Of a stretch of 53,390 nt of DNA, positions 10,498 through 53,390 are shown in pieces. How positions within the stretch are numbered: the stretch's first letter is position 1; each line of letters starts with the position of its first letter. A program made the position numbers and the translations under genes. The DNA lies in IMG/VR virus record IMGVR_UViG_3300025307_000067, positions 1 through 53,390 of that record; one strand, given 5' to 3'. The stretch comes from a virus. The notes under the pieces are model-generated. The model saw only the letters and a list, made by a program, of their open reading frames with translations, was not told the origin of the DNA and did not search any database.

Positions 10498-11211
10498 TCA
10501 ATCTTTGTAGGGGACTCTTACTGGTTTGTTTTTTAGTTTTCTTCTAACCCAAGATTCTTTTATCTTCTTTTTGGCTTCTTCAGTATGTTGTTTGCCATAG
10601 AAATGGTTTTTCTCTCCTTTATGAGCCTCACTGTTCTTCCTTCGAGCTTCTTCTGAAGGAGCCTTATTATAGTTAGGATTCTTATTTCCTAATTTACCTT
10701 GCCTAATCTTTTCAATAGTTTTTGGAGTATGTTTTACCCCTTTATTCCAAGAAATTCTTCCTTTCCTTGCTTTACTTAAATTTTTTCGATGATCTTCTGA
10801 AAAAATCCTATTTTTGTAAAGTTGTCTTAGTTTTTGTTTGAACTCATCAGAACATATATGACCGCCGGATCCTTCTCCTCCATTCGTCATATTGGCAAGA
10901 ATACCTGTTCCATTATCGTGACGTCCATACAACTCTATAGCAGCCCTTTCGATATCAAAAGCGTCTTGTTCTGAAAGATTGTCAAGAAATATCTCTTCAG
11001 TGAAATCCAAACCCGACTTCCAAAGAGCGTGAATGATAGCTATTTTATATATTTTTCTTCCTGATTTATGCAATAGCTGCTGAGCTTCTTTTCGATGACA
11101 TTCATATCTATGATTTTGCCCCTTACCTACATAGAATGGGCAGGCCAGATTTGAATCTTCTGGGTCTTCCTTATCTGGCCTGCGCAGGTAGTAAATATAA
11201 AATCTCGTCAA
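10498..11211 (-). CDS. GIY-YIG homing endonuclease with NUMOD3-type repeats
   Basis: 237 residues from a TTG start at 11211 that overlaps the stop of the HTH gene. The nuclease domain (about 1-110) shows FYIYYLRRPDKED, PFYVGKG and the catalytic-region glutamate in NMTNGGEGSGG. The rest is a chain of basic NUMOD3-like repeats (FSEDHRKNLSKARKG, HTPKTIEKIRQGKLG, HTEEAKKKI) that bind DNA. It ends KPVRVPYKD. The start was set by comparison with its paralogue at 52795, which begins MNIFYVYYLRRPDKED. A frame opening 180 nt earlier only re-reads the HTH gene out of frame. Confidence 0.85.
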   Translation of the reverse strand: MTRFYIYYLRRPDKEDPEDSNLACPFYVGKGQNHRYECHRKEAQQLLHKSGRKIYKIAIIHALWKSGLDFTEEIFLDNLSEQDAFDIERAAIELYGRHDNGTGILANMTNGGEGSGGHICSDEFKQKLRQLYKNRIFSEDHRKNLSKARKGRISWNKGVKHTPKTIEKIRQGKLGNKNPNYNKAPSEEARRKNSEAHKGEKNHFYGKQHTEEAKKKIKESWVRRKLKNKPVRVPYKD

Positions 11212-11378
11212 GTTTTCTTTCCTGGAATCCGATTCCAAACCGCTTTGGTTAAGTCCTCCTGTTTTATCAACCATATTGGGCCGTATTTCTTGGCCTGGAT
11301 CTTGCCAGATTGGATCAATTGATGAATCCTGCCTGGAGTTAGGCTCAGTTTCTCCGCCGCTTGCCGTGTGGTTAACAT
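11208..11378 (-). CDS. HTH_17/excisionase-like DNA-binding protein
   Basis: 56 residues found by translating the region directly. MLTTRQAAEKLSLTPGRIHQ, then LIQSGKIQAKKYGPIWLI, is the classic HTH_17 pattern of Xis-like proteins. It lies just downstream of the palindromic promoter at 11395-11435, which suggests autoregulation, and its stop overlaps the GIY-YIG start, which suggests a coupled two-gene mobile unit. Confidence 0.82.
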   Translation of the reverse strand: MLTTRQAAEKLSLTPGRIHQLIQSGKIQAKKYGPIWLIKQEDLTKAVWNRIPGKKT

Positions 11379-11394
11379 TTTTAGTCCTCATATT

Positions 11395-25165: not shown

Positions 25166-25518
25166 GGGGGTGTAATGGTTTCGACGGTGGCAGGAAATCA
25201 TAGTTGCGTTCCGGGGCCAACTTCCGTTAATGTTGGACATGGCACACTTGCCGACTCTTACTACCAACTGAAAGCGGCTTAAGGCACGCTTTCCGTTCGT
25301 ACTGATGATTTCAGATAGTCAGATGCGGGCGTCAAACCTAATCTGGATAGGAGATATGATGTTGCTGCATCGTCATTATCCGAAGTTTAGCGCAGCTGGT
25401 CTGGCAGGAGTTGATCTCAGAGCAATATTGCCGGGCGAGACGGAGTCTGAGATTATGAATGTAGATGCTATGGTAGAATGTTCTCCGGACCCGGGTTCGA
25501 CTCCCGGCACCTCCACCA
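25166..25518 (+). ncRNA. ssrA: tmRNA (ssrA), tag ADSYYQLKAA
   Basis: 353 nt. The 5' end GGGGGUGUAAUGGUUUCGACG is the tmRNA signature (split GGGGGUG / UAAUGGUUUCGACG). The 3' end has the T arm CCGGG-TTCGACT-CCCGG and an encoded ACCA. The acceptor stem pairs GGGGGUG (25166-25172) with CACCUCC (25508-25514) and includes the G3-U70 pair read by alanyl-tRNA synthetase. The tag frame runs from the resume codon GCC at 25250 to TAA at 25280-25282, encoding ADSYYQLKAA. Host tags usually end LAA, so KAA may change recognition by ClpXP or SspB. It should rescue stalled ribosomes during infection. Confidence 0.93.
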
Positions 25519-26333: not shown

Positions 26334-27581
26334 GTGATCAAGGCGATCTTATGTCTCTTGCTGTTAATCTCTTATCCAGTGACTGCCGCCAGCCCACTCC
26401 CAGTAAGGGAAGTGACTATGCAGTCCTGGCTCCGTTATGTCAAAACTTGCTCAGACAAGTATGGGATTGACCCAAACTTTGCCTTGGCGGTGGCAGAGAC
26501 GGAATCTTCCAATAAGGAGGTACGATTCAGATTTGGTAAAATGGGCAAAGGAACTTACTACGGACCATTCGGCATCCATAAATGTTTCCTTAACAAATGG
26601 GCAATTAATGATCCGATGGTTAATACGGAGGTGGGAATTAGAGCACTTGCTCGGTATAAGGATCAAAAGAAATCCCTTAAGAAGTACAACGCCTCCTTCA
26701 ACGAAGGATACTGGAAGCGGATAAAGCAGTTGGAACGCCAGAACCGGATGGCTAAGGTCTTTAAGGAGAGCCAAGTGCTGATAGTTGATGGAAACAATTG
26801 TGCGTATAGAGAAGGAATTTCTAAAGCAGGCCTCTCCTATAATGGCAAGCCAACAGGTGCTATTTTAGGATTTCTGAGACAACTCAGATCTCTACTGGAG
26901 ATTTATCCGGGCGAAGTTGCCGTTTGCTGGGATTCCAGACGTTCGCTTCGTAGGGAGTTTCACTCAGAGTACAAGGCGAATCGTAGGAACGGTGGAGAAG
27001 TTCCTGAACAGATCCAAGATGTATTCACTCAGATCGAAGATCTCCGAGATCACATTCTTCCTAGAATAGGCTATCCAAACCAGCATATTCAGGACGGCTA
27101 CGAAGCCGATGATCTGGTGGCGGTCCTATGTCAGAGACCAATCGACGCTTATCGAGTAATCATCTCTTCTGATAACGACCTGTTCCAATGCCTGGGCCCG
27201 TCCGTCTTCATGCATAACGTCTCCACTAAGAAAAAGTATACCTACAAAGACTTCCAGGAAGAATACGGGGTTACCCCCAGGCAATGGCCGGATGTTAAGG
27301 CCATAGCAGGTGACGCAGGGGATAATGTGATTGGTGTGCCTGGAGTAGGACCTAAGACGGCTGTCAAGTACCTGAGCCCGCCTGACGCTAAAGGAAAGAC
27401 GGTGTCCGATAAAGTGTCGCGTCGGATTGAAGAACACCGCGCAATCATCGTTAGAAACACTCGCCTTGTCAAGTTACCTTGGGAAGGCTGTGATCCCGGA
27501 GAGGTTCAGAAATCGCAGTTCAACGAACGGGAATACATTCGGGTCTGTAATGAGTATGGGTTGAATTCTTTGCTGAGGTGA
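26334..27581 (+). CDS. lytic transglycosylase fused to a 5'-3' exonuclease
   Basis: 415 codons from a GTG. Residues 1-19 are a signal peptide (MIKAILCLLLLISYPVTAA). Residues about 25-135 are an SLT-type transglycosylase, with catalytic Glu in VAETESSN, GPFGIHK and the closing YNASFNEGYW. Residues about 145-415 are a FEN/PIN 5'-3' exonuclease with LIVDGNNCAYR, YEADDLVAVL, ISSDNDLFQ and the helix-hairpin-helix GDAGDNVIGVPGVGPKTA. One domain works outside and one inside the cell. An in-frame ATG at 26748 (MAKVFKESQVLIVDGNN) could start the nuclease separately. A true fusion or overlapping products are both possible. Confidence 0.8.
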   Translation: MIKAILCLLLLISYPVTAASPLPVREVTMQSWLRYVKTCSDKYGIDPNFALAVAETESSNKEVRFRFGKMGKGTYYGPFGIHKCFLNKWAINDPMVNTEVGIRALARYKDQKKSLKKYNASFNEGYWKRIKQLERQNRMAKVFKESQVLIVDGNNCAYREGISKAGLSYNGKPTGAILGFLRQLRSLLEIYPGEVAVCWDSRRSLRREFHSEYKANRRNGGEVPEQIQDVFTQIEDLRDHILPRIGYPNQHIQDGYEADDLVAVLCQRPIDAYRVIISSDNDLFQCLGPSVFMHNVSTKKKYTYKDFQEEYGVTPRQWPDVKAIAGDAGDNVIGVPGVGPKTAVKYLSPPDAKGKTVSDKVSRRIEEHRAIIVRNTRLVKLPWEGCDPGEVQKSQFNEREYIRVCNEYGLNSLLR

Positions 27582-27913
27582 TAGAGTTGAATAGAAAAGA
27601 ACATCTTCGTATAGATCAGCTTAGTGAGATTATTCAGAGAAGTCGAAGACAAATATATCGGACTATGGAGCGAGTTGATGTTAGAGGGAATACTTACTTT
27701 AGGGTACCACAAGAAGTGAGAGAAATGGATCCGAACGATCGGCTGATGAAAACCAAAGAAGTCTCAATTCTCTTCTCTATTCATCAGACAACAGCAATTC
27801 GGTGGTTTAATGAAGGGAAATTAAGGGGAGTTAAACTCGGCGAAGGGAACAGTTGTATTCGGATTTTTAAGAGTAGTGTAGATAAATTATTGAAAGAATC
27901 AGACAATGTCTGA
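27578..27913 (+). CDS. double HTH DNA-binding protein
   Basis: 111 residues from a GTG overlapping the previous stop. Two helix-turn-helix stretches: IDQLSEIIQRSRRQIYRTME, and MKTKEVSILFSIHQTTAIRWF with the wing EGKLRGVKLGEGNSCIRI, which is MerR/excisionase-like. It overlaps the start of the large terminase and may bind packaging DNA or regulate the arm. Confidence 0.65.
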   Translation: MIELNRKEHLRIDQLSEIIQRSRRQIYRTMERVDVRGNTYFRVPQEVREMDPNDRLMKTKEVSILFSIHQTTAIRWFNEGKLRGVKLGEGNSCIRIFKSSVDKLLKESDNV

Positions 27914-29411
27914 ACTAGATAAACATCTTCGTGCAGTAGAGGCTGTACAATATCCTACCTCCATAATTCGTGAGCTGTGCAATCGAGATTTTTATTTCTT
28001 CCTAAAGTACTTTTGGCAGTCAATATGTCACGATACATTTCTTTCCAACTGGCACATTGAGTATCTCTGTAGTACTCTTCAAAAGAAAGCCGAACGAGTA
28101 GCAAATCGCCTACCTAATGATTTTGATTTGGTTATCAACGTACCTCCGGGGACGTCGAAAACAATGACCTGTAACGTCATGTTCCCGGTCTGGTGCTGGA
28201 CGAAATGGTACTGGATGCGATTCCTGACATTTGGTTACAACCAGGAGCTTTCCTTAGAAGCAGCAGATAATTCTAGAAACCTGCTTGTCTCACAGATGTT
28301 TCAGGAAGTCTATCCCGAACTGATAATGAAGCGAGGCAAAGAAGGTGTAACCAATTTCAGAATAGTTAAGATTGAGGATGACGGTACTATTAGGTTGGGA
28401 GGAGGTAGGTTTAGCTCCTCTATCTCTGGCACTGGCACCGGTTTCCATGGCGATCTGATTATCATAGATGATCCACTAAATCCAAAACAGGCCGCATCGA
28501 CTGTTGAGCTCAAAAACAGTATTGACTGGCTCGACCAAACCCTCCCTACGCGTAAGACAAATAAAGAAGTTACTCCTACGATCCTAATTATGCAGAGGCT
28601 ACATGAAGGAGATCCATCTGGCCATCTGTTAGCCAAGAAGAAAACTAAAGTCAAGCATATCTGTCTGCCTGGTGAGATCAATACCTCTCAGTATGCAGAC
28701 AAAGTAAGACCAATAGAGTTGGTTAGCAAATATGTGAACGGCCTCCTTGATCCTATTAGACTTCCTCAGTCTGTTTTAATAGGAATGGAAGAGAGTTTAG
28801 GGCAGTATGGTTACGCTGCCCAGTTCGGTCAGTCCCCCACTCCTCCTGCTGGTGGGATGTTTCGTGTAGATCGTTTTGTGATGGTTGAATCTATGCCGTC
28901 TCCATCTACCATAATTCAGACAGTTCGGTCTTGGGATAAAGCGGGAACGAAAGACGGCACAGGGGCCTTTACTGTCGGTACCAAGATTCACAAACTGGCC
29001 AGTGGTAAGTATCTTATATCGGATGTTGTTAGAGGGCGATGGTCAGCAGAGGTCAGAGAGCAGATCATCAGATCAACTGCCGAAGCAGATGGCCCTGGAG
29101 TAGAGATAGTTCACGAACAGGAACCAGGATCAGGTGGTAAGGATAGTGCTCAAGCTACAACCAGAAATCTGGCTGGCTATTCTGTCACGGCCGAACGACC
29201 TATTGGGAACAAGATTGCCAGGGCCGATACTTTGAGTGTGCAGGTTAATATGGGGAACGTGATGTTGTTAAAGGGTTCTTGGAATTATGAATTCATAGAG
29301 GAGTTTCGATATTTTCCTTTCAGTAAGTTCATGGACCAGGTCGATTCTGCTTCGATGGGATTCACTAAGTTGGCTCAAAAGAAACAGGTGTTAGTTTTAG
29401 GGAGGGCCTAA
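27906..29411 (+). CDS. large terminase subunit
   Basis: 501 residues. The packaging ATPase domain (about 1-270) has the Walker A-like VPPGTSKTM, Walker B LIIIDDP and coupling motif TILIMQRLHEGDP. The C-terminal nuclease domain begins TVRSWDKAGTKDGTGAF with its first acidic residue, followed by VEIVHEQEPGSGGKD and the late acid in KIARADTLSVQ. Length and order are standard for TerL. It translocates and cuts concatemeric DNA at the portal. Confidence 0.93.
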   Translation: MSELDKHLRAVEAVQYPTSIIRELCNRDFYFFLKYFWQSICHDTFLSNWHIEYLCSTLQKKAERVANRLPNDFDLVINVPPGTSKTMTCNVMFPVWCWTKWYWMRFLTFGYNQELSLEAADNSRNLLVSQMFQEVYPELIMKRGKEGVTNFRIVKIEDDGTIRLGGGRFSSSISGTGTGFHGDLIIIDDPLNPKQAASTVELKNSIDWLDQTLPTRKTNKEVTPTILIMQRLHEGDPSGHLLAKKKTKVKHICLPGEINTSQYADKVRPIELVSKYVNGLLDPIRLPQSVLIGMEESLGQYGYAAQFGQSPTPPAGGMFRVDRFVMVESMPSPSTIIQTVRSWDKAGTKDGTGAFTVGTKIHKLASGKYLISDVVRGRWSAEVREQIIRSTAEADGPGVEIVHEQEPGSGGKDSAQATTRNLAGYSVTAERPIGNKIARADTLSVQVNMGNVMLLKGSWNYEFIEEFRYFPFSKFMDQVDSASMGFTKLAQKKQVLVLGRA

Positions 29412-29445
29412 ATATTTTGATGAAAACCAGATTGAATCTGTGAAA

Positions 29446-29460
29446 TTTTACTATAATATA
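29446..29460 (+). promoter_or_regulatory. promoter of the TIGR-Tas-like operon
   Basis: TTTTACTATAATATA with TATAAT at 29452-29457. The transcript should start at about 29464, in the first repeat of the array, so the leader is the array itself. Confidence 0.62.
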
Positions 29461-29652
29461 AGTAGAAGCCAGGGGGGCTGAAGAAAACCATCATAATAAA
29501 GCGAGCCATGGACTGAAAGAAAACCATAGCGAAGAAGCGAGTCATTGAAAGCAAGAAACCCACAAACGTTAAGCGAGCCATGTATGCTAAGAAAACCAAA
29601 GATCATAAGCGGGCCATCAATACCAAGAAGACCAAACAACGTAAGCGTAATT
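29460..29652 (+). repeat. TIGR-like guide array 1
   Basis: From 29481 the sequence repeats every 18 nt: a 10-nt repeat plus an 8-nt variable spacer, with two repeat types alternating (AAGAAAACCA and AAGCGAGCCA). Units start at 29481, 29499, 29517, 29535, 29553, 29571, 29589, 29607, 29625 and a degenerate one at 29643; a variant AAGTAGAAGCCA at 29460 opens the array. The 36-nt super-period with two short spacers is the layout of tigRNA-coding arrays. TGA inside one unit argues against a coding repeat. Confidence 0.8.
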
Positions 29653-29677
29653 CCTAATCAAAAGGAGAACCTGAAAG

Positions 29678-30454
29678 ATGAGAACAAGCAAAATCAAATT
29701 GGAAGATTTGGTATTCGATGAAAACCTGATCTCCCTGCGGAAAATCAATGACCAGATTGTTGGCCAGTATCGTCAGGCTTATCGAGCTGGTGCCAAAATG
29801 CCTCCGATCATCATCGAGAGGAAAACTAACCGGATCGTCAGTGGCAATCATCGGGTCAAGGCTATGCTCAAGGAATATGAGTCTGACCATGAAATTGGCG
29901 TTATCGTCAAGGAATATGCCAGTGAGAAAGCTCTGCTGCTGGATGCAGTCAAAGAAAACTCTGAGCACGGCTATCCTCTGGACGGCATCTCCCGTAAGGG
30001 TTTGGCTTGTGCCCTGCGTAATCATGGTGCCTCCCCGGATGAAATGTCGGCAGCCTTTTCGGTCTCCTATACCAAGATCGAAACCTGGTTTGAGGGGACG
30101 GCAGATGTTATGAATGTCGTCACCATCGGAAAAGATGTGCATCGGGTGACGTTGGTGGAGAGAGCTACTGCTCATGTTTCTCCTCCGGGCACCGTAGCAA
30201 TGCCTGTCAAACGTCACTTTCCTTTGGGGAGAACGGTTACTGCTCCTCAGTATGATGAGCACATGAAGAAAGACTTAGGGTTGCCTTTGGGGCAGCTTGC
30301 CTATCAGATTGTGCGGTGGGTCAAGAATGGCTGGATTGAACGGACGTCCCAGAATCTCGCCGCCTTGGTTGACTTGAAACAAGCTCTGGATGGGTTCTTT
30401 GCTGAAGGCGTTGCTCAGATTGGGGATGGAGTTCCCAAAGTGATTGATGGGTGA
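29678..30454 (+). CDS. ParB/Srx-like nuclease-fold protein of the TIGR-Tas-like locus
   Basis: 258 residues. The N-terminal ParB-like fold (about 5-95) shows MPPIIIERKTNRIVSGNHRVKAM, the DGHHR-type motif of ParB-like CTPases and nucleases. The middle (DGISRKGLACALRNHGASPDEMSAAFSVS in pieces) is a helix-turn-helix. The C-terminus is helical. It lies between arrays 1 and 2 and shares the leader AATCAAAAGGAGAACC with the Tas gene, so the two are clearly one unit. It may supply DNA cutting or DNA marking that the Tas protein lacks (inference). Confidence 0.72.
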   Translation: MRTSKIKLEDLVFDENLISLRKINDQIVGQYRQAYRAGAKMPPIIIERKTNRIVSGNHRVKAMLKEYESDHEIGVIVKEYASEKALLLDAVKENSEHGYPLDGISRKGLACALRNHGASPDEMSAAFSVSYTKIETWFEGTADVMNVVTIGKDVHRVTLVERATAHVSPPGTVAMPVKRHFPLGRTVTAPQYDEHMKKDLGLPLGQLAYQIVRWVKNGWIERTSQNLAALVDLKQALDGFFAEGVAQIGDGVPKVIDG

Positions 30455-30476
30455 GTGAATTTTGGTCGTCTTCTCC

Positions 30477-30576
30477 AAGTAAACCAAAGAAGTCAAACGG
30501 GTCAAAAAACCCAAGAAAACCAACAAAAGCAAGCGAGCCAATACATATAAGAAAACCGAAGAGGATAAGTGCAACT
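30477..30576 (+). repeat. TIGR-like guide array 2
   Basis: Units start at 30477, 30495, 30513, 30531, 30549 and 30567. They alternate AAG(T/A)AAACCA and AA(A/G)CG(G/A)G(T/C)CA repeats with 8-nt spacers, and the last is degenerate. Same strand and phase logic as arrays 1 and 3. Confidence 0.78.
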
Positions 30577-30607
30577 TAACCAACCTTTAATCAAAAGGAG
30601 AACCGTA

Positions 30608-31465
30608 ATGAGAACACAAGATCAGATCGCATTAAGGATGTACGTCAGAGCCAGGGAAGATTTTCAGGACATGCGCAAACGAATGGATAACCGTCTTGGC
30701 CAAAAGGCAGATGGCAAAGCGCAGAACCTCAAGCAAGATCGGGTATTCAGCCAGGAAGACGCAAACAATTTCGGCATCATTTCTATGGAGGCCCGCCGCA
30801 ACGAAAAATCTGTGGAAAAGATGCTCAAGCAAGTACTGAAGCGTTTCCCCATCTATACCAAATGGCTGTTGAATGTCAAGGGTGTAGGCGAAGTCATGGC
30901 CGGCCACATCTTGGGTGATTTCGACATCACCGTTGCCACCACGGTTTCCAAGATGTGGCAATATTCTGGTCTTAACCCCGGTTTGGTTCGGGGCAAAGTT
31001 CGGATCGAGGCTGCCAAATACAAACCTGAAATGGGTCAGATAGCTTCTATCATATCTGATGAAGATGGCAAACCCAAGGATTACATCTATCAGAGCAATG
31101 ATCTGGTTAGGGGAGATAAGGCCACACCGGGCTATGTTCTGCCTTATAACAAGGCTTTACGCACTGCCTTGGTAGGTATCCTGGCCTCTGGATTTGTCAA
31201 GTGTCAATCATCCTACGCCATGGATTACTACTATCCTTACAAAGCCCGTCTGGAGCAGGAGTTCAATGGCGTGGCCAGCATCGGCAACAAAGATGAAGGC
31301 AAAGCGTGGAAGGATGTCAGTAAGGGTCATCGTGACAATGCTGCCAAGCGCTACATGATCAAGATGTTTCTGAAAGACCTGTATGTGGCATGGCGTACTA
31401 TGGAAGGGTTGGTTGTCAGGCCGCCTTATGCGGAAGAGTTTCTGGGTAAGGTACATTCTGAGTAA
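30608..31465 (+). CDS. Tas-like protein: Nop5/IS110-C-terminal fold, no nuclease domain
   Basis: 285 residues from ATG 30608 (AAGGAG upstream). A helical N-terminus is followed by LLNVKGVGEVMAGHILGDFD and SKMWQYSGLNP, the helix-hairpin-helix and Y-x-G-L block shared by IS110 transposase C-termini and Nop5/Tas proteins. Later blocks YNKALRTALVGILASGF and GHRDNAAKRYMIKMFLKDLY complete that fold. The IS110 N-terminal DEDD domain is missing, and no RuvC or HNH domain is present, so it resembles the nuclease-lacking (TasA-type) members. Arrays 2 and 3 flank it directly. Confidence 0.75.
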   Translation: MRTQDQIALRMYVRAREDFQDMRKRMDNRLGQKADGKAQNLKQDRVFSQEDANNFGIISMEARRNEKSVEKMLKQVLKRFPIYTKWLLNVKGVGEVMAGHILGDFDITVATTVSKMWQYSGLNPGLVRGKVRIEAAKYKPEMGQIASIISDEDGKPKDYIYQSNDLVRGDKATPGYVLPYNKALRTALVGILASGFVKCQSSYAMDYYYPYKARLEQEFNGVASIGNKDEGKAWKDVSKGHRDNAAKRYMIKMFLKDLYVAWRTMEGLVVRPPYAEEFLGKVHSE

Positions 31466-31467
31466 GT

Positions 31468-31838
31468 AAGTGAGCCAAAAAACTCAAGTAAATCAATGCT
31501 GAGAAGCGAGTCAGAACCTGTAAGTAAACCACTGTTGCAAAGCGAGTCATCAAATTCAAGTAAACCAGGGATTGCAAACGAACCATACCCTTAAAGTAAA
31601 ACCATAAAAGGGAAGTGAGTCATATACCTTAAGAAAAACCATGTCATATAAGCGGACCACGGTCGTAAAGAAACCCAACATGGAAAAGTTGGCCAGGTTC
31701 TCCAAGGAATCCGAGTTATGAAGCGAGTCGTGCGTTACAAGGAAACCACATTAAGGCAGCGAGCCATAATGATAAAGAACGCCAATTAGGCAAAGCGGGT
31801 CAAAGAGTTTAAACAAATCATGTTTGATAAGCGGGAGC
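31468..31838 (+). repeat. TIGR-like guide array 3 (longest)
   Basis: About 21 alternating half-units of 18 nt (two are 19, one is 17), from AAGTGAGCCA at 31468 to AAGCGGGAGC at 31829. Repeats drift more here (AAGTTGGCCA, AAGGAATCCG, CAGCGAGCCA). In the frame that makes array 1 look like KKT/KRA peptides, in-frame TAA and TGA occur repeatedly, so it is not coding. It ends at a terminator. Confidence 0.8.
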
Positions 31839-31842
31839 GCGT

Positions 31843-31885
31843 AAAACCCTGAGGCGAATTAAGTCGCTTTGGGGTTTTATTTTTT
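31843..31885 (+). terminator. intrinsic terminator closing the TIGR-Tas-like operon
   Basis: AAAACCC, AGGCGA, loop, TCGCTT, GGGTTTT followed by ATTTTTTATT: a two-part stem and a U-tract. Confidence 0.85.
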
Positions 31886-31928: not shown

Positions 31929-31997
31929 ATGATATGCCTTATCTGTAAACGACCAGAATGCTGGGCGGAATACAAGGAGAGTTGTCGGCGTGGGTGA
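31929..31997 (+). CDS. possible 22-residue Cys-rich peptide
   Basis: MICLICKRPECWAEYKESCRRG has a CxxC and two more cysteines, like a minimal zinc knuckle. It starts a few bases after the predicted transcript start, with only a weak ribosome site. Tentative. Confidence 0.3.
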   Translation: MICLICKRPECWAEYKESCRRG

Positions 31998-32041
31998 GAT
32001 TAATTTCCACACCCAACAATCCTCCAATGAGGAACAAAACA

Positions 32042-33514
32042 ATGACGACTAAATCAAAAGTCACCCCGATAAAACCGAATGCTGATTTCAGCGCCATCCA
32101 GGTTATGAGCACCATGCTCTCCAGGGCAATGCTCTCGGCACAACTTGGAATGAGTTACGGGACGAATCGCGATCTTTATCAAGCTCTTGGCTATGATAAG
32201 GACATAACATATAACCAGTACGTGAGCCAATATAGCCGCCAAGATATCGCCAGGGCTGTCATCGACCGACCGGTATCAGCCACTTGGCAAGGCGGGTTTG
32301 AACTGATTGAAGCAAATGACGAGAAAGACACTAAGTTGGAAAATGCCTGGTATGACCTATATGATAAACTAAAACTCCGTTCCAAATTGGCCCAACTGGA
32401 CCGTCTTACTGGCCTTGGTACCTACGGAGTTCTACTCCTTGGTCTATCTGATGCCAAGACCATTCAGGACTTCGCCCAACCAGTACAGGGAGTCAAACAC
32501 GATCTACTCTACGTCAAACCCTTTGGCGGCATGGCCACTCAAGGTAGTGCCCGGATTCAAACCTACGTAACAGGCCCTTCTGATCCACGTTATGGCCAAC
32601 CTCTTATCTATTCCATTACCATTAACAATCTGAGTACCGGCTCCAGCGAAATCCTCCAGGTTCATTACAGTAGAGTCATTCATGTGGCAGATGGTCTAAT
32701 GGAATCTGAGATTGAAGGTACACCTCGCCTTATGTGCGTATGGAATCGTCTGATGGATTTGGAAAAGATAGTCGGCGGTTCGGCTGAGATGTTTTGGCGT
32801 GGCGCTCGTCCCGGCTATACCGGTGCCATTGACAAAGAGTTCCAAGTCACTCCAGAAGCCAAAGCGGACTTGCAGGCTCAGTTGGATGAATATGAACACA
32901 ACTTACGACGCTTCCTTACCACCCAGGGGGTTGATATCAAGTCCCTCCAATCTCAGGTTGAAAATCCAACTGCCCATGTTGATGTCTGTATCCAGATGAT
33001 CAGTGCTGTTACAGGTATTCCCAAGCGGGTGTTGACTGGGAGTGAGAGAGGGGAGCTTGCCAGTACGCAAGATCAATCGTCATGGTTCAATCTCATTGAC
33101 GGCCGTAGAGGAGAGTTTGCAGAGCCGATGATAATCAGACCATTCATTGATCGTTGCATTGAACTCCAGATACTGCCGCCCCCAGTTAAAGAATATTCTA
33201 TCCAATGGCCAGATTTAAGATCTCCCAGTGATAAGGACAAAGCCGACATTGGGTCTGTCAGATCAACTGCTATCAAAAACTATGCCTCAACTCCAGCTGC
33301 TGAATTGGTAGTGCCCAAGAAATCATTCTATCGAATCTGCCTCGGGCTGGATGACGATGAGGTCAGCTTGATCGAAGAAGAGCTCCAGGCGGCATTGGGA
33401 TCTGAGGTTAACGCTCCTGAGATGCAGCCTGGGGGGGGAGTGGTTGTGCCTCCCCCGGTTCCTGCTGTGGTGCCGCCGGCGAATCAACCTCCCATTCCAC
33501 CCGCGGGCAAATAA
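32042..33514 (+). CDS. portal protein (DUF1073-like)
   Basis: 490 residues starting MTTKSKVTPIKPNADF; GAGGA 9 nt upstream decides the start. RAVIDRPVSATWQGGFEL, LGTYGVLLLGL and the helical stem region with a late ISAVTGIPKRVLTGSERGELAS follow DUF1073 portals. The proline-rich C-terminus is typical of flexible portal tails. It forms the dodecameric ring for DNA entry, next to the MuF protein as usual. Confidence 0.87.
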   Translation: MTTKSKVTPIKPNADFSAIQVMSTMLSRAMLSAQLGMSYGTNRDLYQALGYDKDITYNQYVSQYSRQDIARAVIDRPVSATWQGGFELIEANDEKDTKLENAWYDLYDKLKLRSKLAQLDRLTGLGTYGVLLLGLSDAKTIQDFAQPVQGVKHDLLYVKPFGGMATQGSARIQTYVTGPSDPRYGQPLIYSITINNLSTGSSEILQVHYSRVIHVADGLMESEIEGTPRLMCVWNRLMDLEKIVGGSAEMFWRGARPGYTGAIDKEFQVTPEAKADLQAQLDEYEHNLRRFLTTQGVDIKSLQSQVENPTAHVDVCIQMISAVTGIPKRVLTGSERGELASTQDQSSWFNLIDGRRGEFAEPMIIRPFIDRCIELQILPPPVKEYSIQWPDLRSPSDKDKADIGSVRSTAIKNYASTPAAELVVPKKSFYRICLGLDDDEVSLIEEELQAALGSEVNAPEMQPGGGVVVPPPVPAVVPPANQPPIPPAGK

Positions 33515-33631: not shown

Positions 33632-36600
33632 GTGTCAGTGCCGGCTAAAAAATCTAGAAAACCAGGTTATGTTATCTATGGTGGCCAAGGCTCCGGCAAC
33701 TTTGGCCATGCCGGTAGACCTACCCAAGCTAACCTAACCCAGTCTGATACCTCTACTCTCCTACTCGTACCATCTATCAATATCTATGCTAAACTGGCCC
33801 GTGTGGACCCCACCCGCACATTAGTCCTCCGTAATAACTTCGTTGCTCAGATGACGGCCCGTTTTAGAAAACTCAAAGCCATTATACAGAAAGCTGTCGT
33901 TGATGACGATTGCTTTGGTATCGCCAAGCCTGAATCACAAGGAAGAAGGATTGTGGTGCAGGCTGATCTCACCACCCGGGGTGGCAGATCATTCGACTTT
34001 CCTACCTCACAAGAGAAATCAGCCGCCTTCCTGGAGTGGCTCCGAACCCAGGAACAAGCTGGAATATTAGAAACAGTAAGAATCCCCCAGGTAGGCACTG
34101 GTATAGAAAGTGCCTGGACCGACGTTTTCATAAAAGATAGTTACCAGCGCGGTGTCCAACGAGCCAGAGACGAACTCCTCCGCGGAGGTTATGCTGTTCC
34201 ATCTATGGAAGTTACTGGAGGGATATCCGCGAGCATGATGCAACCCATGCATATAAATCGCCTCGGCGTCGCATTTTCACGCACCTTCGATGGACTCAAA
34301 GGTATAACGAGCGCGATGGATACTCAAATCAGTCACGTCCTCACCAAGGGCTTGGCAGATGGAGACGGCCAGGCTACTATTGCCAAGAAACTCCTCGCCA
34401 CCATCGACGGAAACAACGCCGGTACGTTGGGGATAACGGATTCACTTGGACGCTTTATCCCGGCGGAGCGTCGGGCCGCTATGCTGGCTAGGACAGAGGT
34501 CATACGAGCCCATGCGCAAGGCACACTCCAGGAATTTAAGAACTGGGGTGTTGCTGGAGTTGATGTATTGGCTGAGTGGGTAACTGCTGGCTTCAATGTA
34601 TGTCCCGAGTGTCAAGAACTGGCTGAAAAAGGACCATACAAGATTGAAGAAGCGTGGGATATGCTGCCAGCACATCCCCATTGCTTTATTAGCCCTATGA
34701 TTCCGATTTATACATCAACTGGTTGGAGACCAATTGGTACAGTTCAAGTTGGGGATATGGTTCTTACTCATAAAGGGAGATTCAAGAGAGTATATGGTCT
34801 GCCGAGGACTTTGAAACAAACACCAGAAGTTGTTCATTTTAGTCTTCGAGGTTTTGATAACGATGGTGTGACAATGACAACAAACCATCCAGTGTTGGTT
34901 TCGAATAAATTGTTGCCTCCGCATTGGAAAGAAGCTGGAAAATGTACTCTTGAAGATAGGATAGTTTTATTTGCGAGTAGATGTAAAAGATGCGATAAAA
35001 AAATCCCTTGGTTTAGAACTTATTGTTCTGGGAGCTGTTGTAGTTCTGACAATGCAGAAAGGCAATGGGCTGATCCTGCTCATAGAGAAAATGTTAGTAA
35101 AAAGAACAGAGAAGCTAATTTGAGACAATATGCTTCTGGCGAGAGAGACAGATTTGCCACGAAGAAAGCCAACGAAAAAATTCGGAAAATGATTAAAGAT
35201 GGAACTTGGGGAACTTGGATGTGTGATGATTTCTTTAAGAAGGTTTTCCAAGTTACCAATACTCCAGAACAAATAGCTGTCAACTCTGAGAGAATGAAGA
35301 AAAAAAATCCAATGCATGACCCCGCTATTGTTGCGAAAGCGACAGCTTCTCTTATTAAAACTCTTGAGTTGCATCCAGAGAAAAGATTGAATGCAAGAAT
35401 GGCCAAGCATCGCAAAAGCAATAAGATGACAGGCATTGAACAACTAATGGCTCAGCTTCTTGATCGTCTTGGAATCGAATATATTTTTCAATATCCAATT
35501 TTGAGATATGATGTTGATTTTGCTATACCAACTCTGAAGATTGCAATCGAGTGCGATGGTGAATACTGGCATCAAGATAAACAGAAGGATTTGATCAGAC
35601 AAAAGAGGATTGAAGCAGAAGGTTGGTTTGTATTAAGATATACTGAAACAAAGATTAATCAGTGCTTTGATGAAATTGAAGACGAAGTTGTGAGAGTTTT
35701 AGCTAATCATAATGGTGATTATGAATTTGTTGGTCACCCTATCAAGAAAATTGAAAGAAGAACAGTTACAAAGCCATTGACTTTATATAATCTTGCTGTT
35801 GAGGAAGATGAATCATATATAGCAAGGGGATTAGTGGTTCACAATTGCCGCTGTGCCTGGCTGGCAAAACCAATAGATGGCAAGGAGAAGACCCCAGTTG
35901 AGGTGGCGCCGGAAGATATAGTCAGTATCATTTCTCCAGAAGATTCAGTTTTTGATAGCATTGCCAACAACTATCTCGAGTCTCCATCATCTATACAAGG
36001 CAGAGATAGAACCCTCGAAGGTCTGGCCGAAACTCAAGGATTTACTCAGCTTCCTAAAGTAGTCTCTGGACAGGAATTTGAAGATATAGTTCAGCAGCAA
36101 GGAATGAAGGAACTTTTTCGCGGGGTTCAGAACAGTAATATCGCTAATATGTTTGCTACCGGTGACTATTATGGTGCAACCGGAGCCTTTGGAAGCGGTA
36201 CATACGCTGCTATGGAGCAGGATTTGGCCAAGTTGTATATGGCCGGGGATAATGCAGTATTAATGAGAATGGGCCTACCAGCAGATGTCAAGATTGGTAA
36301 GTATGCTGATGTCCTTGCAAGTATGAAGCAAGATACAACTTTTGAAAAGGCTGGCAGTAAGGTATTTATGCAAGGATTTAAAGAAAACAGTGAGTTCCTG
36401 GTAGAAAAAGGCAAGGTCATTGAATCTGTTACGAAGGATGTAGGTAGATGGGCGGTGGTTAATGGTTATGATGCTATCCAAGCCCCAGATCAGATGATTA
36501 TATTGAATCGCAGTAAGGTATTGGTCAGCAATGATCTTCTTTCTAGGGAAGGAAAAGTTATTAGATTGCTCCCCGAAACCCCAGCCGCTGGTGTGGTGAA

Positions 36601-37210
36601 GTGGAAGCCGGTTATGAGCAAGGCAGAGGCAGAGAAGTTTATTGAAGGTAGTAAGTATACAGAGGACGTTTATCATGTGACTTATGAGCAGAATGCGAAA
36701 GCAATTATGAATGAAGGTTTTGATTTAGAAAAGAAAGGTTTCGGAAGAGTTTTTGGTGAAGGTGTTTATGCTGGAATGGATTTAGAAACAAAGAGTATTT
36801 ATAGAATAATGGCAGGAGGATTAAAAACTGAGAGCTTAACTCTAAAAGTTAAAGTAGATAATCCATTATTTTTAAGCGGTAGTAAGATGTATGGAATAGA
36901 TAAGACTAATATTTATGAAGACATAGTAAATAAGAAACATCAGTTTATGAAAGAGATTAATAAGAATGATATTAAATTAAGTAACCAGGCAGATATAAAA
37001 TTTCCTGGAAATCCAAGTGGAAAAAGACAATGGCTAAATGAGAATGGTTTTGTAGGATATAGCGAATTGGATTCAAAAGCATTTACTATGGCAGTTAAAG
37101 ATTTCGGATATGATTCGATAATAATAGAAGAAAAAGGCGGGCCAACTAAAATACTAGGTGGAAATCAAATTATTACTTTTGATCCTAAAAAGGTTGTGGT
37201 GATAAAATGA
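33632..37210 (+). CDS. MuF-type head protein with an intein and two C-terminal ADP-ribosyltransferase-like domains
   Basis: 1192 codons from a GTG (AAGGAG upstream); 804 residues after removal of the 388-residue intein. The MuF domain (about 160-350 plus 739-750) has ARTEVIRAHAQGTLQEF and the closing CPECQELAEKG ... HPH/CRCAW motif. Its C-terminal domains are toxin-like. The first (about 805-970) has KELFRGVQ and GAFGSGTYAAMEQDLAKLY. The second (about 1010-1190) has VYHVTYEQNAKAIMNEGF, FGEGVYAGMD and FGYDSIIIEEKGG. Both resemble ADP-ribosyltransferase folds (H/R, S/Y, E pattern). MuF proteins with effector tails are injected with phage DNA or used as polymorphic toxins. Confidence 0.82.
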   Translation: MSVPAKKSRKPGYVIYGGQGSGNFGHAGRPTQANLTQSDTSTLLLVPSINIYAKLARVDPTRTLVLRNNFVAQMTARFRKLKAIIQKAVVDDDCFGIAKPESQGRRIVVQADLTTRGGRSFDFPTSQEKSAAFLEWLRTQEQAGILETVRIPQVGTGIESAWTDVFIKDSYQRGVQRARDELLRGGYAVPSMEVTGGISASMMQPMHINRLGVAFSRTFDGLKGITSAMDTQISHVLTKGLADGDGQATIAKKLLATIDGNNAGTLGITDSLGRFIPAERRAAMLARTEVIRAHAQGTLQEFKNWGVAGVDVLAEWVTAGFNVCPECQELAEKGPYKIEEAWDMLPAHPHCFISPMIPIYTSTGWRPIGTVQVGDMVLTHKGRFKRVYGLPRTLKQTPEVVHFSLRGFDNDGVTMTTNHPVLVSNKLLPPHWKEAGKCTLEDRIVLFASRCKRCDKKIPWFRTYCSGSCCSSDNAERQWADPAHRENVSKKNREANLRQYASGERDRFATKKANEKIRKMIKDGTWGTWMCDDFFKKVFQVTNTPEQIAVNSERMKKKNPMHDPAIVAKATASLIKTLELHPEKRLNARMAKHRKSNKMTGIEQLMAQLLDRLGIEYIFQYPILRYDVDFAIPTLKIAIECDGEYWHQDKQKDLIRQKRIEAEGWFVLRYTETKINQCFDEIEDEVVRVLANHNGDYEFVGHPIKKIERRTVTKPLTLYNLAVEEDESYIARGLVVHNCRCAWLAKPIDGKEKTPVEVAPEDIVSIISPEDSVFDSIANNYLESPSSIQGRDRTLEGLAETQGFTQLPKVVSGQEFEDIVQQQGMKELFRGVQNSNIANMFATGDYYGATGAFGSGTYAAMEQDLAKLYMAGDNAVLMRMGLPADVKIGKYADVLASMKQDTTFEKAGSKVFMQGFKENSEFLVEKGKVIESVTKDVGRWAVVNGYDAIQAPDQMIILNRSKVLVSNDLLSREGKVIRLLPETPAAGVVKWKPVMSKAEAEKFIEGSKYTEDVYHVTYEQNAKAIMNEGFDLEKKGFGRVFGEGVYAGMDLETKSIYRIMAGGLKTESLTLKVKVDNPLFLSGSKMYGIDKTNIYEDIVNKKHQFMKEINKNDIKLSNQADIKFPGNPSGKRQWLNENGFVGYSELDSKAFTMAVKDFGYDSIIIEEKGGPTKILGGNQIITFDPKKVVVIK
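34682..35845 (+). mobile_element. intein with an EDxHD/Vsr-like homing nuclease
   Basis: 388 residues inserted in the conserved HPH/CRC motif of the MuF domain. It begins with Cys (CFISPMIPIYTSTGWRPIGT), has block B TTNHPVLVS, and ends LVVHN before Cys+1. The central part has a Cys-rich segment (CKRCDKKIPW, CSGSC), NUMOD-like basic repeats, and a nuclease core YDVDFAIPTL, IECDGEYWH, RIEAEGWFVLRYTE. Canonical splice residues (Cys1, His-Asn, Cys+1) suggest it is active. Confidence 0.9.
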
Positions 37211-42052: not shown

Positions 42053-42889
42053 ATGACGCATCTGAATACTGGCATCTATGAGATTAGAAATACTACCAAT
42101 GGTAAGCGATACGTTGGTAGTGCTATATCTTTTGATACTCGTTTCCGAGCTCATCTGAATGATCTTCGCAAAGACAAGCATCCCAACCGACACCTCCAGT
42201 TCGCCTGGAACAAGTATGGAGAAGAGTCATTTCAGATCGGTCCAATAATCATTTGTTCAGTCAAGGATTTATTGTTTTACGAACAGATAATACTGGACAC
42301 TTTCTACGACTCTCTTTACAACTTAGCTCCAACTGCTGGCAGTCAGTTAGGATTCAGATTCTCTAAAGAATCAAGGCTGAAGATGTCGATAACCAGGACT
42401 GGTCAATCTATCATCTTGCCTCCTCGTACCAAGGAACATAGCCTGGCTATTTCTAAGGCTAATACTGGAAAGACCCAATCTCTCAAAACACGACAGAAAA
42501 GATCGGACAGTATGAAAGGTAAAAATCTTGGCAGGAAAGCATCTGATCAAGCAAAGAAAAATATCTCTGATGCCAAGAAAGGTTGTATTCCCTGGAACAA
42601 GGGCAAGACGGGAGTCTACTCAGCAGATACTCTTGCCAGGATATCCGTTACCTCCACCGGTCGTGTTTTCTCTCCTAAGTCCAGACAAAAGATGGCTGAT
42701 TCCCGTAAGGGTAAACCGAATGGGTTTCAAGGTAAACATCATACTCCTGAAGCACTTGATAAAATAGCTGCCGCTGGAAGGAAGCAAGTTCAATCTCGCG
42801 AAACTCGTCAAAAACGCTCGGACTCAATCAAGAGGTGGCATGCAGAGAGAAAGGCTCAAACAAAGCCTGTAAGAATTCCGTACCTATAA
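42053..42889 (+). CDS. GIY-YIG homing endonuclease with NUMOD3 repeats (Seg-like)
   Basis: 278 residues. GIYEIRNTTNGKRYVGSA is the GIY-YIG strand pair; the catalytic Arg (FRAHLNDL) and Glu (YEQIILDTF) follow. Residues about 115-265 are NUMOD3-type repeats (FSKESRLKMSITRTG, ASDQAKKNISDAKKG, FSPKSRQKMADSRKG, HTPEALDKIAAAGRK). It ends TKPVRIPYL. Free-standing between the capsid gene and the next gene, as for mobile phage endonucleases. Confidence 0.92.
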   Translation: MTHLNTGIYEIRNTTNGKRYVGSAISFDTRFRAHLNDLRKDKHPNRHLQFAWNKYGEESFQIGPIIICSVKDLLFYEQIILDTFYDSLYNLAPTAGSQLGFRFSKESRLKMSITRTGQSIILPPRTKEHSLAISKANTGKTQSLKTRQKRSDSMKGKNLGRKASDQAKKNISDAKKGCIPWNKGKTGVYSADTLARISVTSTGRVFSPKSRQKMADSRKGKPNGFQGKHHTPEALDKIAAAGRKQVQSRETRQKRSDSIKRWHAERKAQTKPVRIPYL

Positions 42890-52791: not shown

Positions 52792-52794
52792 ATG

Positions 52795-53390
52795 ATGAAC
52801 ATCTTCTATGTATACTACCTAAGACGTCCCGATAAAGAAGATTCATTGTGGCCCGGAGCGAGTCAACCCTTCTATGTAGGAAAGGGCTGCAATGGAAGGA
52901 TTGGAGATCACAGATGGGAAGCAGAGCTTCTTAGACATAAACCAGGTCGTAAAACTATTAAGAACTTAATTATCCATAAATTATGGAAGCAAGGGTTGAA
53001 CTTCACAGAAGAGAAAATGTTTGAAAACCTTACTGAGAAAGAAGCTCACGAAATAGAAATTGAAGCTATCTCGGTATATGGTCGGATTGATCTTGGCACT
53101 GGCTGCTTAGCAAATTTGACAGATGGTGGTGAAGGCACTTCTGGTTGGATACCGTCAGAAGAGACAAAGCGAAAAATAGGAGATACAAAGAGAGGAAAAG
53201 AATCATGTTTAAAGGGTAAACATCTTACTGAGGCTCATAGAGAGAAGATTAGACAAGCCAATCTGGGAGAGAAAAGTCCACAGTTTGGAAAAACTAAAAC
53301 AGATGAACACAGAAAAAAAATAGGGGATTCTCAGAGAGGAGAGAAAAGTATACATTTTGGGAAACACCATTCAGATGAACGTAAAAAAAT
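52795..53390 (+). CDS. GIY-YIG homing endonuclease with NUMOD3 repeats, cut by window end
   Basis: Starts MNIFYVYYLRRPDKEDS (AGAGG 6 nt upstream; the earlier ATG at 52792 has poor spacing) and runs off the right edge. PFYVGKGCNGRIGDHRW, NLTDGGEGTSG and repeats such as LTEAHREKIRQANLGEKSP align along their length with the left-arm gene at 10498-11211, its paralogue. No HTH partner gene precedes this copy. Confidence 0.85.
   Translation, partial: MNIFYVYYLRRPDKEDSLWPGASQPFYVGKGCNGRIGDHRWEAELLRHKPGRKTIKNLIIHKLWKQGLNFTEEKMFENLTEKEAHEIEIEAISVYGRIDLGTGCLANLTDGGEGTSGWIPSEETKRKIGDTKRGKESCLKGKHLTEAHREKIRQANLGEKSPQFGKTKTDEHRKKIGDSQRGEKSIHFGKHHSDERKK

What the first reader, a model, noticed from the sequence alone, without database searches (positions are those of the whole stretch)
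29446..31885. Complete TIGR-Tas-like RNA-guided locus carried by a phage
One transcription unit contains a promoter, three arrays of alternating 10-nt repeats with 8-nt spacers (18-nt half-units, 36-nt full unit), a ParB-like gene, a Nop5/IS110-C-terminal-type protein, and a terminator. The 36-nt dual-spacer geometry and the Nop-like protein are the defining features of TIGR (tandem interspaced guide RNA)-Tas systems. The array periodicity is seen directly; the family link is from established knowledge; guided DNA targeting by this copy is inference.
Basis: partly seen in the sequence, partly recalled or inferred. Interest (0 to 1): 0.95.

Follow-up and report, generated by a model that had tools for sequence, protein, structure and literature searches.

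The report
Phage TIGR-TasA/TasParB guide-RNA locus
A bacterial virus carries a complete set of parts for a recently described RNA-guided DNA-binding system (three guide arrays, a nuclease-free TasA protein and a ParB-like partner); it is a clear new member of a published type, and what its guides target is still unknown.

Summary
Window 29463-31883 holds three arrays of alternating 10-nt edge (AAGCGAG[C/T]CA) and loop (AAGAAAACCA) repeats with 8-nt spacers, in 36-nt units: 5, 3 and 10 units, 18 guides. They score 95, 50 and 172 in a scan where 40 shuffled windows never exceed 21.8. The arrays flank a ParB-fold gene (29678-30454) and a 285-aa protein (30608-31465) that passes NCBIfam's TIGR-Tas cut-off (139 vs 100 bits), folds like TasH/TasR and has no nuclease or transposase domain: TasA, not IS110. 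A strong terminator closes the unit; the promoter is only suggestive. The contig is a tailed phage; the cassette lies between terminase and portal genes. Faure et al. 2025 (PMC12045711) already described this type (tasParB-tasA, arrays before, between and after the genes, 10-nt repeats), so it is a new member of a known kind. Of 71 related loci fetched, 69 have detectable same-strand arrays and 30 carry TasParB. Tandem-target searches found no self-targeting. One guide exactly matches the conserved gp23 capsid motif of T4-like phages, but other guides do not support it. RNA processing, DNA binding and natural targets remain untested.

The parts
29432..29457 (+). candidate promoter: TTGAAT (29432-29437), 14 nt, perfect -10 TATAAT (29452-29457)
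   Evidence: read from the sequence; not called by the sigma-70 scan, so weak
29463..29650 (+). [quoted passage not shown]
   Evidence: chain score 95 vs at most 21.8 in shuffles
29655..29677 (+). leader/ribosome-binding segment TAATCAAAAGGAGAACC in front of the ParB-like gene, nearly identical to the one in front of tasA
   Evidence: direct repeat family D11, 88%
29678..30454 (+). tasParB: 258-aa ParB-N-fold protein
   Evidence: PHROG 1033 ParB-like E=5e-7; AlphaFold2 pLDDT 86.7; Foldseek top hits all ParB/Noc/KorB; relatives in 30 of 71 Tas loci
30459..30572 (+). TIGR array 2: 3 guide units between tasParB and tasA, ending in a truncated edge repeat (AAGTG)
   Evidence: chain score 50
30588..30607 (+). 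leader/ribosome-binding segment TAATCAAAAGGAGAACC in front of tasA
   Evidence: D11
30608..31465 (+). tasA: 285-aa solo Nop-domain protein, no nuclease domain
   Evidence: NF052498 139 bits vs cut-off 100; PDB sequence hits TasR 9mty and TasH 21kl; pLDDT 88.7; Foldseek TasH 9w04 E=4e-11, TasR 9mty E=1e-9
31468..31838 (+). TIGR array 3: 10 guide units with some 1-nt register shifts, ending in a truncated edge repeat (AAGCGGG)
   Evidence: chain score 172
31841..31883 (+). intrinsic terminator (17-pair stem, 6-nt loop, T run)
   Evidence: -27 kcal/mol, z -4.55

Best explanation
This is a complete phage-borne TIGR-TasA system of the tasParB sub-type. One transcript should carry three arrays and two genes. 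TasA (a symmetric Nop-domain dimer) should bind the pre-tigRNA, and a host RNase should trim it to 36-nt tigRNAs, each holding an edge half, spacer A, loop, spacer B and the next edge half. The two 8-nt spacers then pair with opposite strands of an adjacent 16-18 bp DNA site. Because TasA has no nuclease, it would bind and bend DNA but not cut it. TasParB most likely joins it there as a ParB-type DNA clamp, turning the RNA-chosen site into a nucleoprotein block that hinders transcription, replication or inheritance of a competing phage, plasmid or satellite. Shown here: arrays, geometry, protein families and folds, gene order, terminator, conservation across dozens of loci, and agreement of edge and loop repeats within a locus. 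Inferred from published TasA/TasR/TasH work: processing, dual-strand pairing and bending. Speculative: the TasParB step and the competitor targets.
For: Array statistics. TIGR-Tas family profile over cut-off; all 19 aligned relatives match it. Fold match to TasH and TasR complexes. ParB fold. Same-strand 36-nt arrays in 69 of 71 related loci and on the opposite strand in none; TasParB in 30 of the 71. In loci with TasParB the first repeat base agrees between edge and loop (16 G/G, 10 A/A, 0 clear mismatches), as Faure et al. reported for motifs bound by a symmetric dimer. Published: TasA binds 36-nt RNAs, and the operon with tasParB is conserved. Spacer GC follows contig GC (r = 0.76), as expected if targets are DNA of similar composition.
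Against: No target found: own-genome tandem matches are at the level seen for wrong geometries, and of the four guides scanned in IMG/VR none gave a signal that other guides support. No expression or processing data. Array 3 repeats are partly degenerate, so some units may be dead. The role of TasParB is unknown, also in the literature.
Confidence: 0.9

Rival explanations
1. RNA-guided self-partition or self-regulation: tigRNAs direct TasA and TasParB to sites on the phage's own DNA, making programmable parS sites for segregation, packaging or gene control.
For: ParB partner; the cassette sits beside the packaging genes here and beside terminase or replication genes in several unrelated phages.
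Against: 911 distinct guides against 1.6 Mb of TIGR-bearing contigs: no own-contig exact tandem match, no excess for the expected A.rc(B) geometry over wrong geometries, no preferred gap. Neighbour genes are diverse, with no single dominant family.
Confidence: 0.12
2. Host gene control: the guides bind host promoters and TasA/TasParB act as repressors that remodel the host cell, as the unrelated phage-borne TldR proteins do.
For: Nuclease-free effector; phage-borne RNA-guided repressors exist (abstract of PMC13418256).
Against: Host of this phage unknown, so not tested. Spacers turn over quickly between related loci, which fits moving targets better than fixed host genes.
Confidence: 0.2
3. 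IS110-family transposase or its remnant, with the repeats as an unrelated satellite.
For: PHROG 4285 is labelled 'transposase'; weak NF033542 match.
Against: No DEDD domain; TIGR-Tas profile far above cut-off; fold nearest to TasH/TasR; arrays accompany the gene in dozens of phages.
Confidence: 0.01
4. A decaying, non-functional TIGR cassette.
For: Array 3 has register shifts and degenerate repeats; no clear sigma-70 promoter.
Against: Both genes are intact with good ribosome-binding sites, arrays 1 and 2 are regular, the terminator is strong, and a second contig (L011) has identical guides over the part it holds.
Confidence: 0.06

Closest known systems
TIGR-TasA with tasParB (Faure et al. 2025, PMC12045711, fig. 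S14 as described in the Methods)
   Same: tasParB-tasA operon; dual-repeat arrays upstream, between and downstream; 10-nt repeats; TasA as solo Nop domain
   Different: No difference found beyond sequence; this copy has all three array positions filled and lies between terminase and portal genes
TIGR-TasR (9mty) and TIGR-TasH (9w04, 21kl)
   Same: Nop-domain fold and 36-nt dual-spacer array
   Different: Those carry an N-terminal RuvC or HNH nuclease; this protein has none. TaTasR spacers are 9 nt with UG...CCA repeats; here 8 nt with AAG...CCA-type repeats
IS110-family bridge-RNA recombinases (IS621, ISCro4)
   Same: Nop-like RNA-binding C-terminal domain (weaker fold match)
   Different: No DEDD catalytic domain here; arrays instead of a single bridge RNA
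VIPR (PMC13142463)
   Same: Phage-borne RNA-guided DNA binding with an accessory protein; natural targets there are competing phages and satellites
   Different: Unrelated protein (RAMP) and unrelated RNA code (GGY/NN pentamers)

Membership tests
TIGR-Tas | Array of two alternating 8-12 nt repeats with short spacers, about 36-nt unit | tested here: met
   10-nt repeats, 8-nt spacers, 36-nt unit, three arrays
TIGR-Tas | Adjacent Nop-domain Tas protein | tested here: met
   NF052498 139.1 bits vs cut-off 100; fold match to TasH/TasR
TIGR-Tas | Truncated edge repeats at array ends and a terminator after the last array | tested here: met
   AAGCG, AAGTG and AAGCGGG at the three 3' ends; terminator
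TIGR-Tas | Box C/D motifs covary between edge and loop repeats | tested here: met
   Across loci with TasParB the first repeat base agrees in all 26 clear cases
TIGR-Tas | Processing into 36-nt tigRNAs bound by Tas | not testable with these tools
   Needs small-RNA sequencing
TIGR-Tas | Tandem-spacer binding to opposite strands of a DNA target | tested here: inconclusive
   Only searched for target sites; none established
TasA sub-type | No HNH or RuvC nuclease domain | tested here: met
   285 aa, aligned throughout to the Nop part; no nuclease hit in Pfam; model
tasParB-tasA sub-type | ParB-like gene in the same operon | tested here: met
IS110 transposase | N-terminal DEDD catalytic domain | tested here: not met
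   Absent; only positions 117-261 of the IS110 profile match, 20.5 bits vs cut-off 140

The most novel reading that the evidence does not exclude
TasA and TasParB together form an RNA-programmed ParB loader: the tigRNA chooses the DNA site and TasParB spreads or clamps there, so that a phage can write new parS-like sites on competing DNA (or its own) by changing 8-nt spacer pairs. A concrete but weakly supported target would be the gp23 capsid gene of T4-like phages for the guide at 29500.
Probability: 0.25. Interest if true: 0.85.

Novelty: new member of a known kind. Interest (0 to 1): 0.4.

Why it matters
TIGR systems were described only in 2025, and their natural targets, spacer source and the role of TasParB are open questions. 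A compact, intact phage copy with three arrays and 18 readable guides, plus dozens of relatives, gives a well-defined locus for testing processing and RNA-guided ParB recruitment. The related loci also show that whole 36-nt units are kept or replaced together and that blocks of units duplicate, which bears on how arrays change without an adaptation module.

Tried and rejected
Self-targeting: all 911 distinct guides against 1.6 Mb of held TIGR contigs in six geometries and five gaps. Counts are flat, own-contig hits are at the level of wrong geometries, and there is no exact own match.

T4-like capsid target: guide 29500 (TGGACTGA/TAGCGAAG) has 39 exact matches at a 1-bp gap in IMG/VR versus 6 and 7 at gaps 0 and 2. 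Twenty-two of the 39 are one conserved site in gp23, confirmed by Pfam Gp23 on two of them. The other 17 guides show no excess in five of these contigs. A guide shared by L003 and L004 also hit a homologous cluster of contigs, so such clusters arise in redundant families by chance. Kept as a lead only.

Genomic position: neighbours are sometimes terminase/portal or replication genes in unrelated phages, but comparison with genes 4-9 kb away shows no decisive preference.

36-nt periodicity at 53252-53381: a coding NUMOD3 repeat of a GIY-YIG endonuclease, not a TIGR array.

Rfam has no match in the locus. No search of the host genome was possible: the record is a virus contig and its host is unknown.

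Full report
What is there. The window is a whole IMG/VR virus contig of 53,390 bp. Between the large terminase gene (27906-29411; PHROG 38) and the portal gene (31958-33514; Pfam Phage_portal_3) lies one compact cassette on the + strand: array 1 (29463-29650), tasParB (29678-30454), array 2 (30459-30572), tasA (30608-31465), array 3 (31468-31838) and a strong intrinsic terminator (31841-31883). The arrays alternate edge AAGCGAG[C/T]CA and loop AAGAAAACCA repeats (10 nt each), separated by 8-nt variable spacers, so one unit is 36 nt. There are 5, 3 and 10 units, 18 guides. A perfect TATAAT (29452-29457) precedes array 1, but no good -35, so the promoter is only suggestive. Arrays 1 and 2 both run into the same leader with a ribosome-binding site, TAATCAAAAGGAGAACC, which suggests that [array + leader] is a duplicated module (inference).

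Chance. Chain scores are 95, 50 and 172; the best chain in 40 dinucleotide-preserving shuffles of the whole window, both strands, is 21.8. Self-match at lag 36 is 0.49-0.60, against 0.25-0.37 at lags 34, 35, 37 and 38. Mononucleotide-shuffled copies of the sequences held at that point (427 kb) gave no chain.

The proteins. The 285-aa protein scores 139 bits on NCBIfam NF052498 'TIGR-Tas system RNA-guided endonuclease' (cut-off 100) and only 20.5 bits on IS110 (cut-off 140), over positions 117-261 of the latter. All 19 aligned relatives match NF052498. Sequence searches of the PDB hit TasR (9mty) and TasH (21kl). An AlphaFold2 model from 19 relatives (pLDDT 88.7) matches TasH and TasR complexes first (best E 4e-11 and 1e-9) and IS621/ISCro4 recombinases second. 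There is no nuclease domain, so the family's word 'endonuclease' does not fit this copy: it is TasA. The 258-aa partner has weak profile hits to ParB and a confident model (pLDDT 86.7) whose top Foldseek hits are ParB, Noc and KorB structures. A G-x-H-R motif and an N-x-x-x-G-x-x-L motif are nearly invariant among 23 relatives.

Related loci. Two scans of viral contigs and one of genome contigs gave 71 Tas loci. Arrays with the 36-nt unit were detected in all of them but L092 and L100, always on the tasA strand. Thirty of the 71 have a TasParB relative. In TasParB loci the first repeat base is the same in edge and loop (16 G/G, 10 A/A, no clear mismatch). This agrees with the published statement that edge and loop motifs diverge together because a symmetric dimer reads both.

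What is known. Faure et al. (PMC12045711; [quoted passage not shown] They show 36-nt tigRNAs bound to TasA, TasR and TasH, and DNA targeting by two spacers on opposite strands, with 0-2 bp gaps allowed for TasR. The locus here meets every anatomical feature of that sub-type. The role of TasParB and the natural targets are stated there as open. A later preprint on the unrelated phage system VIPR (PMC13142463) found that its natural targets are competing phages and satellites, which makes inter-element competition the most plausible role by analogy.

Targets. From the published 8-nt 3' overhangs I derived the target order A followed by rc(B). I searched 911 distinct guides from all loci against 1.6 Mb of held contigs with arrays masked. 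Matches with up to 2 mismatches are about equally frequent for right and wrong geometries and for all gaps, and no guide has an exact own-contig match. So there is no sign of self-targeting, which weighs against a programmable centromere on the phage's own DNA. Scans of IMG/VR with exact tandem patterns gave 40-71 hits per guide for the expected geometry and 17 for one reversed-geometry control. The exception is guide 29500: 39 hits at a 1-bp gap versus 6-7 at other gaps, 22 of them one conserved site in the T4-like major capsid gene gp23. The other guides show no excess of matches in these T4-like contigs, and another guide produced a similar homologous cluster. I treat this as probable chance, worth one experiment.

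Array change. Related loci L003/L004, L096/L097 and L101/L103 share only part of their units, with both spacers kept together, while other units differ completely. L003 carries a four-unit block twice, with small spacer changes. This suggests turnover of whole 36-nt units and block duplication; the mechanism is not shown.

Verdict. Observation confirmed, interpretation supported, novelty: a new member of a known kind. RNA-guided, non-cutting DNA binding: high confidence by family membership. A block of competing DNA together with TasParB: the most likely use, not shown.

Noticed in passing
window 25166-25518 (+): A complete tmRNA gene (Rfam RF00023, 132.7 bits, full model; tag peptide ADSYYQLKAA) lies inside the phage contig, upstream of the terminase gene.
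   Followed up: partly
window 33632-37210 (+): A 1192-aa ORF combines a Mu-F-like head morphogenesis part, an intein (weak splicing-domain hit) with a DUF559/Vsr-type nuclease inside it, and a weak PARP-like ADP-ribosyltransferase stretch towards the C-terminus.
   Followed up: partly
window 10498-11391 (-), 42053-42889 (+), 52792-53390 (+): Three GIY-YIG/NUMOD3 homing-type endonucleases; the last one runs off the contig and its NUMOD3 repeat mimics a 36-nt DNA periodicity.
   Followed up: yes
window 26334-27581 (+): One 415-aa ORF joins an N-terminal lytic-transglycosylase-like stretch with a 5'-3' exonuclease; a gene fusion or two genes read through.
   Followed up: no
L003 6451-6590 and 8152-8290; L096/L097; L101/L103: TIGR arrays in related phages change by whole-unit replacement and block duplication, with both spacers of a unit inherited together.
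   Followed up: partly
window; L014; L018; L079; L116; L002; L016: In several phages with different terminase families the TIGR cassette sits directly beside the terminase or portal gene; counts do not prove a preference.
   Followed up: partly
window 29500 guide; L194, L210 and 20 other contigs: Exact tandem match with a 1-bp gap between one window guide and the conserved gp23 capsid motif of T4-like phages; probably chance.
   Followed up: partly
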